In this document: piece by piece, positions 57,806 to 61,634 of the stretch | Position numbering within the stretch: position 1 is the stretch's first letter | How the letters are laid out: every line of letters starts with the position of its first letter | NCBI RefSeq assembly: GCF_002968285.2 | Contig: NZ_CP134400.1 | Location: 4,650,001-4,714,000, forward strand | Reading direction: 5' to 3' | DNA length: 64,000 bases | Source: Mycobacterium sp. ITM-2016-00318 | GTDB taxonomy: Bacteria > Actinomycetota > Actinomycetes > Mycobacteriales > Mycobacteriaceae | Made by a program: the position numbers and the translations under genes | Notes under the pieces: model-generated | The model's database searches: none | Seen by the model: only the letters and a program-made list of their open reading frames with translations | Told to the model about the DNA's origin: nothing

Positions 57806-59086
57806 TCAGCTGGGCGAGAGGAACGCGCGCAGCGCCGCGGAGTAGGCGCCGACGTCGTCGGCTCCCATCACCTCGCGCGCGGAGTGCATGGCCAATTGCG
57901 CAGCGCCGACATCCACCGTCGGAATGCCGGTGCGGGCAGCCGTCATCGGGCCGATCGTCGAGCCGCACGGCAGATCGGCACGGTGCTCGTAGCGCTGCAG
58001 CGGAATCCCTGCGTGACTGCAGGCCAGCGCGAACGCCGCGGCGGTACGGCCGTCGGTGGCATAGCGCAGGTTCGGCTGCACCTTGAGCACGGGACCGGCG
58101 TTGACCTCGATCAGGTGGTACGGCTCGTGGCGCTCCGGGTAGTTCGGATGGGTCGCGTGCGCCATGTCGCCCGATGCCACCATCGAGCCTGAGGCCCGGC
58201 GCAGAAAGTCTTCCCGGCCGCCACCCGCGGCCAGCACGATGCGCTCGAGCACCGTGTGCAGCAGTTCGGACTGCGCGCCGTGATCTGACTGGGAGCCGAC
58301 TTCCTCGTGGTCGAACAGCGCGAGCACAGGAACATAACCGGTGGGGTCGGCGGCAAGGAACGCCTCGAGCCCGGCGTAACACGTGCACTGGTTGTCCAGC
58401 CGGGGCGCGCTGACGAGCCGACCGTCGATGCCCGCCACCGTCGACGGGGTCAGGTCGTGGGTCATCAGGTCGAATCCCAGGATCTCGTCGGCGTCGGCCC
58501 CGACCTGTTCGGCGACGTAACCGAGGAAGGATTTCGGGCCGCTGCCGACCCCCCAGACCGCGTTCACGTGCCGTTGCGGGTCCAAGGACACCGCCTTGCG
58601 GTCTTCGGCCAGATGGATGGCCAGCTGCGGCACCCGCAGGATCGGCTCGTCGATGCGAACCAGTCGGTCGGCCACCTCACCGGACGAGCGCACCGACAGC
58701 CTGCCGCTGATGCCGAGGTCGCGATCGAGCCACGAGTTGAGCCACGCGCCGCCGTACGGCTGCAGCGCAACCACCTGCCAGCCGGATACGAAGCGGTCGG
58801 GATGCTGTTTGACCCGCAGATTCGGGCTGTCGGTGTGGGCGCCGACGATGCGGAAGGGCGCATCGGATCCGCCACCGGACTTCCACGCGACCAGCGAACC
58901 CGAGCGGACGACGAAGAAGGCGCCGGCCGTGCTCGATTCGCGGCTCGCCGGGGCAGGCCAGGCATCCTGTTCGTCGAGTTCGACGAAGCCGGCCTGCCGC
59001 AGCCGCTGCGCGACCGTCTCGCAGACGTGGAACGGCGACGGCGAGGCGTCGATGAACTCGCACAACCCCTGTGGACTTGCGGACAT
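57806..59086 (-). CDS. pepC: M18-family aspartyl aminopeptidase
   Basis: The 426-residue metallopeptidase has the M18 ligands: His in [13 protein letters not shown], Asp/Glu in LFDHEEVGS, and His in [14 protein letters not shown]18 enzymes release N-terminal Asp/Glu (or other residues) from peptides with two zinc or cobalt ions and form dodecameric tetrahedral shells. Position and size match Rv0800. Divergent from the DyP gene by 42 bp. Confidence 0.94.
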
Positions 59087-59128: not shown

Positions 59129-60163
59129 GTGCCCGCAGTCCAGCCGCAACCGGTTCTTGCGCCGCTGACTCCTGCCGCCGTTTTCCTGGTGGCGGCCATC
59201 AAGGAGGGCCAGCGGGCGGTGTCCTCAGTTCACGACGCGCTGACCGATGTCTCGGGATTGGTCCGCGCGATCGGTTTCCGCGACCCGACGAAACGGCTGT
59301 CGGTGGTCACCTCGATCGGATCCGAAGCGTGGGATCGGCTGTTCTCCGGGCCGCGGCCGGCCCAACTACATCCGTTCGTCGAGATCCGTGGCGGCAGGCA
59401 CCAGGCCCCGGCAACGCCGGGCGATCTGCTCTTCCACATTCGCGCCGAGTCGATGGACGTCTGCTTCGAGCTGGCCACCAAGCTCGTCGAGTCGATGGAC
59501 GGGGCCGTGACGATCGTCGACGAGGTGCACGGCTTCAAGTTCTTCGACAACCGCGACCTGATGGGCTTCGTCGACGGCACTGAGAACCCGGACGGACCGA
59601 TCGCTGTGTCCGCCACCCAGATCGGCGACGAGGATCCCGACTTCGCGGGTGGCTGCTACGTGCACGTACAGAAGTACGTGCACGACATGGGGTCGTGGAA
59701 CTCGCTGTCGACGCAAGAACAGGAGCGGGTGATCGAGCGGACCAAGCTCGACGACATCGAGATGGACGACGCCGTCAAACCCGCCAATTCACACATCGCG
59801 TTGAACGTCATCGAAGACGACGACGGTAACGAGCTCAAAATCGTCCGCCACAACATGCCGTTCGGAGAGATCGGAAAGGGCGAATTCGGCACGTACTTCA
59901 TCGGTTACTCGCGGAGCCCTGCGGTCACCGAGCGGATGCTGGACAACATGTTCATCGGTGACCCGCCGGACAACACCGACCGCATCCTCGACTTCTCCAC
60001 CGCGCTGACCGGAGGCATGTTCTTCACCCCGACCGTCGACTTGCTCGATAACCCACCGCCGCAGCCGAATTCGGCGCACGAGGAGCCTGAGTCGACAGCG
60101 GCTTCGGCCGCCCCCCGGGACGGATCACTCGGCATCGGCAGCCTGAGAGGAACGACCCGATGA
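59129..60163 (+). CDS. dyp: DyP-type haem peroxidase with encapsulin-targeting tail
   Basis: A 344-residue dye-decolourising peroxidase. Distal Asp149 lies in GFVDGTENP, the proximal haem His222 in NSHIAL, and an essential Arg in GYSRSP. After about residue 310 a Pro/Glu/Ser-rich linker leads to the C-terminal DGSLGIGSLRG, which matches encapsulin cargo-loading peptides. DyPs reduce peroxide using bulky donors. It overlaps the encapsulin ATG by four bases. The cargo tail is intact even though the shell gene is damaged. Confidence 0.95.
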   Translation: MPAVQPQPVLAPLTPAAVFLVAAIKEGQRAVSSVHDALTDVSGLVRAIGFRDPTKRLSVVTSIGSEAWDRLFSGPRPAQLHPFVEIRGGRHQAPATPGDLLFHIRAESMDVCFELATKLVESMDGAVTIVDEVHGFKFFDNRDLMGFVDGTENPDGPIAVSATQIGDEDPDFAGGCYVHVQKYVHDMGSWNSLSTQEQERVIERTKLDDIEMDDAVKPANSHIALNVIEDDDGNELKIVRHNMPFGEIGKGEFGTYFIGYSRSPAVTERMLDNMFIGDPPDNTDRILDFSTALTGGMFFTPTVDLLDNPPPQPNSAHEEPESTAASAAPRDGSLGIGSLRGTTR

Positions 60164-60956
60164 ACAACTTGTACCGCGACCTTGCTCCGATCACCGAGGA
60201 GGCCTGGGCGGAAATCAAGATGGAGGCGACGCGCACCTTCAAGCGGCACATCGCGGGACGGCGCGTCGTCGACGTCAGCGAACCGAGCGGTCCGGCAACG
60301 GCGGCGGTCAGCACCGGACATCTGCTGAATGTGGGTGCCCCCGGCGACGGCGTGATCGCTCACCTTCGGGAGAGCAAGCCGCTGGTGCGGCTGCGGGTGC
60401 CGTTCACGTTGTCGCGCAGCGACATCGACGACGTCGAGCGTGGTTCGCAGGATTCGGACTGGGATCCGGTCAAGGAGGCCGCGAAGAAGTTGGCGTTCGT
60501 CGAGGACCGGGCGATCTTCGAGGGCTACAAGGACGGGGAGATCGGCGGGATTCGCGCCGGTAGCTCGAACCCGGCGCTGGCCCTGCCGAGCGATCCGCGG
60601 GAGATGCCCGATGTGCTCGCCCAGGCACTGTCGGAGCTGCGACTGGCCGGTGTCGACGGCCCGTATTCGGTGTTGTTGTCGGCCGACGTCTACACGAAGG
60701 TGAGCGAGACCACCGAACACGGCTATCCGATCCGCGAGCACCTCAACCGGCTGGTCGACGGCGACATCATCTGAGCGCCCGCGATCGACGGCGCATTTGT
60801 ATTGTCCACGCGCGGCGGCGATTCGATCTACAGCTCGGCACCGACGTATCGATCGGATACCTCTCGCACGATGCGGAGACGGTGCAGCTGTACCTGCAGG
60901 AGACGTTGACGTTCCTGTGCTACACCGCCGAAGCCTCGGTAGCGCTGACGCCGTGA
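60160..60956 (+). pseudogene. enc: Encapsulin shell gene with nonsense codon and frameshift
   Basis: Codons 1-204 encode a normal encapsulin (Cfp29/linocin family) N-terminal part: MNNLYRDLAPITEEAWAEIK, FKRHIAGRR, PYSVLLSADVYTKV, REHLNRLVDGDII. The next codon, TGG (Trp) in the family, is TGA. The following DNA still encodes APAIDGAFVLSTRGG, then one base is missing at about 60820 and the rest FDLQLGTDVSIGYLSHDAET to ASVALTP follows in another frame to TGA at 60954-60956. So about 60 C-terminal residues of the HK97-type fold are lost. A shell is unlikely to assemble, unless these are assembly errors. Confidence 0.85.
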
Positions 60957-61634
60957 TCAGGCGTTGGCGAGAACCGCGTCGAGCGCAGAGTAGAACAACC
61001 CGAGCCCGTCGTCGGACGGGCCCGTCAGCGCCTCGGTAGCGTGCTCAGGGTGCGGCATCAGGCCGACGACCCGGCCGTTGGCCGATGAGATGCCCGCGAT
61101 GTCGCGCATAGAGCCGTTGGGGTTGTCGCGGTAACGGAACACCACGCGGCCGTCGCCCTCGAGCTTGTCGAGCACGTCGTCGGAGGCCACATAGCGGCCC
61201 TCGCCGGATTTCAGCGGCACCAGGATATCGGCGCCCTGCTCGAAGCGGCTCGTCCACGCCGACGTGTTCGACGCCACCTCCAGCCAGAGGTCGCGGCACA
61301 CGAAATGCAGTCCGGCGTTGCGGGTGAGCGCGCCCGGCAGCAGGCCGGCCTCGCAGAGCACCTGAAAGCCGTTGCAGATTCCCAACACCGGCATGCCGCT
61401 GGCCGCGGCGTCGATGACCGATTTCATCACGGGCGCGAACTTGGCGATGGCGCCGCACCGCAGGTAGTCACCGTAGGAGAAGCCGCCGGGGACGACGACG
61501 GCGTCGACACCCTTGAGGTCGGCGTCGGCGTGCCAGAGGTTGACCGCCTCGGCGCCTGACAGTCGGACCGCCCGTGCGGCGTCGACGTCGTCCAATGTGC
61601 CGGGAAATGTGATGACCCCCACACGAGCAGTCAT
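60957..61634 (-). CDS. purQ: FGAM synthase glutaminase subunit PurQ
   Basis: The 225-residue class I glutamine amidotransferase has nucleophile Cys87 in GICNGFQ and His195-x-Glu197 in MPHPEH. It feeds ammonia to PurL. The ATG overlaps the purS stop by four bases (ATGA), so PurS and PurQ are made in step. Its stop directly abuts the stop of the encapsulin pseudogene on the opposite strand. Confidence 0.96.

What the first reader, a model, noticed from the sequence alone, without database searches (positions are those of the whole stretch)
60160..60956. Encapsulin shell gene broken twice beside an intact cargo gene
The Trp codon after DGDII is TGA and one base is lost about 45 bases on; otherwise the remaining C-terminus is well preserved. 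The DyP partner keeps its LGIGSL targeting tail. Either the strain has just lost its nanocompartment, leaving a free peroxidase, or a shortened 204-residue shell protein has some other use, or the assembly is wrong at two places.
Basis: seen in the sequence. Interest (0 to 1): 0.75.

Follow-up and report, generated by a model that had tools for sequence, protein, structure and literature searches.

The report
Freshly broken encapsulin shell gene
In this mycobacterium the gene for a protein cage is cut short by an early stop and a lost base while the enzyme meant to sit inside the cage is still intact, most likely a very recent loss of the cage (or, less likely, two sequence errors), an ordinary event but a useful natural experiment.

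Summary
Confirmed: a family 1 encapsulin shell gene (window 60160-60956) ends at TGA 60772-60774 after 204 codons and changes frame near 60822, next to an open DyP peroxidase gene (59129-60163) with a targeting tail. In 139 fetched relative loci, chosen as best matches, 138 carry an unbroken 264-269-residue shell; one runs off its contig. The closest shell proteins, 96-97% identical, are full length. No second shell of family 1 or 2 was found in the genome (control); the targeting motif pattern occurs once, in DyP. The 58 residues compared after the stop show no decay: a very recent loss or an artefact. The 204-residue product lacks Asp229/Val230, which hold cargo in solved relatives (PMC11676171), so it should not load DyP. 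Best reading: a fresh pseudogene leaving a free peroxidase. Lesion counts do not mark this assembly as worse than a relative's (8 of 454 genes, this one included, against 7 of 458), but no reads were seen. Three other genomes of the genus keep most of DyP beside a broken shell. Ordinary gene loss; moderate interest.

The parts
59129..60163 (+). DyP-type peroxidase, 344 aa, open frame, the cargo gene
   Evidence: PF04261 and PF20628 over curated cut-offs, TIGR01413; open frame
60122..60160 (+). C-terminal encapsulin targeting peptide of DyP (GSLGIGSLRG and end); Arg at a place that is Lys nearly everywhere else
   Evidence: only genome place of the motif pattern, 60125-60150; residue counts
60160..60774 (+). 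5' part of the family 1 encapsulin shell gene, 204 codons, ending in an in-frame TGA
   Evidence: PF04454 1-205/253 and NF041155 1-202/261
60772..60774 (+). premature TGA
   Evidence: sequence; relatives unbroken
60775..60822 (+). remnant between stop and frame change, still reading as shell in the original frame
   Evidence: 14 residues (codons 206-219) identical in 148 of 216 distinct natural shells; alignment to codon 221
60822..60956 (+). remnant after the frame change: shell codons 222-265 and stop in another frame
   Evidence: 44 of 44 residues identical to shells of L064, L115, L131; PF04454 216-253

Best explanation
The window holds a classical mycobacterial DyP-encapsulin gene pair whose shell gene has become a pseudogene very recently. 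Shown in the sequence: by the standard code the shell frame ends after codon 204, and a second lesion shifts the frame 46-48 bases on; either alone would cut the protein. Inferred: the 204-residue product lacks the end of the HK97-like fold, including the cargo-pocket residues Asp229 and Val230, so no cargo-loaded cage forms and the product is probably degraded. Inferred: DyP, still complete, works as a free peroxidase, its targeting tail now without a partner. The loss probably lies in roughly the last tenth of the branch since this lineage split from its nearest sequenced relative (L114, G033).
For: Two lesions located. Shell unbroken in 138 of 139 fetched loci, one cut by its contig end (these loci were chosen as best matches, so they lean to unbroken genes). 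Less biased: by my reading of the table 344 of 351 genus genomes with a match score like full-length shells (E below 1e-90). P0001 and P0002, 97 and 96% identical, are full length. No other PF04454 or PF19307 gene in the genome, with PF19307 found in 25 of 78 genus genomes as control. Shell dN/dS (codons 1-204) on this branch 0.067-0.084, its sister's 0.085-0.109; no amino-acid change evident in 58 codons after the stop where 24-32 would be expected over the whole branch if neutral, giving an upper bound of about 0.10-0.12 of the branch (pair values). Similar state elsewhere in the genus: G076, G015, G207. Overexpressed unencapsulated DyP alone gave M. tuberculosis mutants nearly wild-type stress resistance (PMC8635971, passages).
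Against: Absence of decay fits a sequence error as well as a recent loss. No second strain of this species was seen, and the genome collection holds one genome per species; one search warns that records of this genome or very near ones may be left out. Another highly conserved gene (acetyl-CoA acetyltransferase-like, C1:4610600-4611806) has a clean frameshift, which could point to scattered indel errors. No expression or protein evidence. In the paper shell plus DyP gave more resistance than DyP alone, so loss may have a cost.
Confidence: 0.62

Rival explanations
1. Sequence or assembly error: the living strain has an unbroken shell gene and the record is wrong at two places within about 50 bases.
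For: No decay in the 58 residues compared after the stop and normal shell selection on this branch; a frameshift in a highly conserved thiolase gene elsewhere in the same contig.
Against: Two errors of different kinds are needed close together; no homopolymer longer than 3 in 60740-60850; lesion counts not clearly higher than in one relative, 8 of 454 (this gene included) against 7 of 458, although both counts are mechanical and include false positives such as the adenine glycosylase gene; genome listed as 99.95% complete, one contig.
Confidence: 0.3
2. The 204-residue truncated shell protein is kept for some other use, for example as a cargo chaperone or a smaller assembly.
For: The remaining 204 codons are open and show normal dN/dS on this branch; [quoted passage not shown]
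Against: No such form in the fetched loci or among the 120 listed hits; codons after the stop are equally undecayed, so the conservation predates the loss; Asp229 and Val230 are missing; family 4 keeps the A-domain alone, about 100 residues, and Pfam gives only Linocin_M18.
Confidence: 0.04
3. Recoding: ribosomes read through the TGA and shift frame to make a full-length shell.
For: Both remnants still read as shell.
Against: Two different recoding events within 50 bases would be needed; in 138 of 139 fetched loci the shell is read without any. Recoding signals were not tested here.
Confidence: 0.02

Closest known systems
Mycobacterial Cfp29-DyP family 1 encapsulin (nearest solved chains 7boj, 9fn9, 7p1t, named Cfp29; their organisms are recalled, not from that call)
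   Same: shell residues 1-204 align with 1-204 of the solved chains; DyP gene directly upstream; targeting peptide; Arg34 and Asp202 of the shell present by numbering
   Different: no codons 205-265 in the open frame; Lys of the targeting peptide is Arg
Broken shells in other genus members: G076 (L189), G207 (L190), G015 (L192); both genes decayed in G329 (L191)
   Same: most of the DyP frame kept (first three), shell broken
   Different: other lesions: a frameshift near codon 130 with the DyP tail kept as GALSIGNLKG (G076), several breaks with the tail lost (G207), a deletion from inside the DyP tail into the shell (G015). G076 and G015 are draft assemblies, so errors are possible there too
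Family 4 A-domain encapsulin-like proteins (PMC8346489, passages)
   Same: truncated HK97-like fold
   Different: about 100 residues, A-domain only, mostly archaeal; no Pfam match beyond Linocin_M18 here

Membership tests
Family 1 encapsulin shell (PF04454, NF041155) | sequence match over the model | tested here: met
   5' ORF 245.9 bits against a cut-off of 24.3, 248.6 against 100, first 202-205 positions only
Family 1 encapsulin shell (PF04454, NF041155) | complete open frame of about 265 residues | tested here: not met
   204 residues; fetched relatives 264-269
Family 1 encapsulin shell (PF04454, NF041155) | cargo gene next door with targeting peptide | tested here: met
   DyP with GSLGIGSLRG tail; Arg in place of Lys
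Family 1 encapsulin shell (PF04454, NF041155) | cargo-pocket residues Arg34, Asp229, Val230 (PMC11676171, section 3.5) | tested here: not met
   Arg34 present; Asp229 and Val230 lie in the remnant after stop and frame change
Family 1 encapsulin shell (PF04454, NF041155) | self-assembly into an icosahedral shell | not testable with these tools
   needs particles from cells
Pseudogene | inactivating lesions where relatives are unbroken | tested here: met
Pseudogene | relaxed selection after the loss | tested here: inconclusive
   no decay seen; loss too recent or an artefact
Pseudogene | lesions real in the organism | not testable with these tools
   no reads, no second isolate
DyP-type peroxidase | both DyP domains in one open frame | tested here: met
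   PF04261 and PF20628, TIGR01413
Family 2 encapsulin (PF19307) as a substitute shell | a match in the genome | tested here: not met
   0 matches; 25 of 78 genus genomes match

The most novel reading that the evidence does not exclude
The lineage is leaving compartment life by steps: the DyP targeting tail began to drift first (Arg for Lys shared with P0121, Arg for Leu in P0122, DyP dN/dS on this branch above its sister's with two of three outgroups), then the shell broke, turning a caged peroxidase into a free enzyme; the genus has done this several times, so it offers repeated natural tests of what the cage is for.
Probability: 0.2. Interest if true: 0.5.

Novelty: new member of a known kind. 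Interest (0 to 1): 0.33.

Why it matters
What the cage adds to the peroxidase is not settled. Species that lost the shell but keep the enzyme (this one and, if their assemblies are right, G076, G015 and G207) allow comparison without engineering: does DyP stay expressed, active and selected, and does its targeting tail decay?

Tried and rejected
A second encapsulin gene: none of family 1 or family 2 (control). Another cargo: three ferritin-family genes without the tail, FolB without it, and the motif pattern found once in the genome, with none for the reversed control pattern. Relaxed selection on the shell before the break: not supported, dN/dS normal; two private residues at columns conserved at 97% or more, one of them (position 126) shared with P0001 and P0002, against 0-5 in 132 comparable proteins. 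DyP: four private changes at such columns; 6 of 124 comparable proteins have as many or more, suggestive only; DyP dN/dS on this branch exceeds its sister's with two of three outgroups and is lower with the third (pair values).

The first lesion surveys counted many antisense or over-long frames as broken genes and were replaced by stricter counts, which still include false positives: the adenine glycosylase hit breaks where the family model starts. G254's match is below the family cut-off, so not counted as a shell. G070's shell is split between contigs, so not counted as broken. No structure was predicted; it would not decide between the readings. Literature searches: encapsulin + mycobacteri + pseudogene (one paper, on Brevibacillus by title), Cfp29 + pseudogene (none), encapsulin + gene loss (none), encapsulin + premature stop codon (four, unrelated by title), and a four-term search with at least three terms (23 papers, 20 listed). 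Only the listings were seen, except three papers opened for passages and one section of one of them read whole. A report of this loss was not found in these.

Full report
What is there. The window lies in a single-contig 5.46-Mb genome that belongs with Mycobacterium/Mycolicibacterium, judging by the named records nearest to its DyP. Between an aminopeptidase-like gene on the minus strand (57806-59086) and a purQ-like gene on the minus strand (60957-61634; both names from reading the translations, not from a search) lie a DyP-type peroxidase (59129-60163) and, overlapping its stop codon, an encapsulin shell gene (from 60160). The peroxidase is complete by both Pfam domains and NCBIfam. The shell frame ends at TGA 60772-60774, after 204 of the usual 265 codons. 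Alignment to the unbroken shell of G011 shows codons 1-221 in one frame up to 60822 and codons 222-265 in another from 60822, and the HMM search of the genome sees the same two pieces.

Is it peculiar to this genome. Of 139 fetched relative loci (best matches, some the same genome twice; 111 distinct shell sequences), 138 have a shell frame of 264-269 residues and one runs off its contig. In the genus search 351 of 396 genomes match PF04454; by my reading of that table all but seven score like complete shells. The seven are this genome, G015, G070, G076, G207, G254 and G329. The four nearest DNA relatives are 84-87% identical over the two genes. The nearest shell proteins, P0001 (97%) and P0002 (96%), are full length, on short metagenome contigs; a library of predicted proteins favours unbroken genes. 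No 204-residue form is among the 120 listed of 5751 hits. No second isolate of this species was seen; the genome collection holds one genome per species, and warns that records very near this genome may be left out.

Real or artefact. For real: two lesions of different kinds, no homopolymer longer than three bases around them, and a lesion count in 1.2 Mb of this genome (8 of 454 genes, this one included) close to that in 1.2 Mb of G011 (7 of 458). Both counts are mechanical and contain false positives. Against: a highly conserved acetyl-CoA acetyltransferase-like gene in the same contig also has a clean frameshift (93.5 and 96.6% identity on its two sides), and the shell remnant is undecayed, as an error would leave it. 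Reads would settle it.

How old. The 14 and 44 residues compared after the stop match natural shells exactly (in 148 and 3 of 216 distinct shells). Over the whole branch since the split from L114 (G033) 24-32 amino-acid changes would be expected there without selection; none is evident, so the loss would fall in about the last 10-12% of that branch, or 15-19% if one change was missed. This takes synonymous change as the neutral clock and three-taxon branch lengths. Shell dN/dS on this branch (0.067-0.084) is no higher than its sister's (0.085-0.109, pair values).

What it does to the system. In the solved M. tuberculosis shell the targeting peptide is held by Arg34, Asp229 and Val230 among others, and Asp202 holds the peptide's Lys in one of nine copies; mutations in the Klebsiella shell point to the same pocket (PMC11676171, section 3.5 read whole). 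The 204-residue product keeps Arg34 and Asp202 and loses 229 and 230. I infer that it cannot load DyP and most likely does not assemble. No other shell was found: PF04454 has no other place and PF19307 none, although 25 of 78 genus genomes have a PF19307 gene. The motif pattern of the targeting peptide occurs only in DyP. So the most likely state is a free peroxidase. That may be workable: in M. [quoted passage not shown] The genome also has a second DyP-domain protein, with a Tat-like N-terminus by eye (C1:4329967).

The targeting tail. This DyP has Arg after IGSL, where 138 of 139 loci (the other has no DyP in its stretch) and 116 of 120 best hits have Lys; one hit has Arg and three did not fit the motif. 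The one Arg is in its nearest relative P0121; the next nearest, P0122, has Arg at the first Leu. In the Klebsiella peptide alanine at the corresponding Lys or Leu abolished binding (PMC11676171, reporting earlier work); Arg is a milder change than Ala at the Lys. DyP dN/dS on this branch is above its sister's with two of three outgroups (0.236 against 0.152, 0.253 against 0.128) and below it with the third (0.177 against 0.215) (pair values). This hints at drift of the tail before the shell broke, but does not show it, and P0121 and P0122 come from short metagenome contigs whose shell genes I could not see.

Precedents. G076 has an open DyP with a tail (GALSIGNLKG) and a shell frameshift near codon 130; G207 has DyP with a lost tail and a shell broken in several places; G015 has a deletion from inside the DyP tail into the shell; G329 has both genes decayed. 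G015 (710 contigs) and G076 (30) are drafts. Of the 45 genomes without a PF04454 match 18 were searched again with the same family, none found. So loss of the shell appears to have happened several times in the genus.

Verdict. A recently broken family 1 encapsulin shell gene beside an open cargo gene: known kind, new instance. Confidence that the loss is real 0.62, artefact 0.30.

Noticed in passing
L151:599-1806 (own genome C1:4610600-4611806, outside the window): acetyl-CoA acetyltransferase-like gene with a frameshift at about codon 109, 93-97% identical to G011's on both sides.
   Followed up: partly
window 60122-60160; proteins P0121, P0122, P0128: targeting-peptide residues that are near-invariant elsewhere are changed in this DyP and in its two nearest relatives (Arg for Lys, Arg for Leu); P0128 has Thr for Ile. 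No listed shell hit shows P0121's contig length, so the shell beside it is unseen.
   Followed up: partly
L189 (G076), L190 (G207), L192 (G015), L191 (G329): other broken shells in the genus, with the DyP frame kept, shortened or decayed.
   Followed up: partly
G076:C11:117732-118453: the family 2 encapsulin of the same genome G076 is also split into two pieces: either a genome losing both cages or a poor assembly.
   Followed up: no
G011, G014, G060, G087, G109, G354, G395: two or three PF04454 matches per genome; possible second family 1 shells or capsids.
   Followed up: no
L280 (own genome C1:4329967-4330515): second DyP-domain protein, with an N-terminus that looks like a Tat signal by eye.
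   Followed up: no
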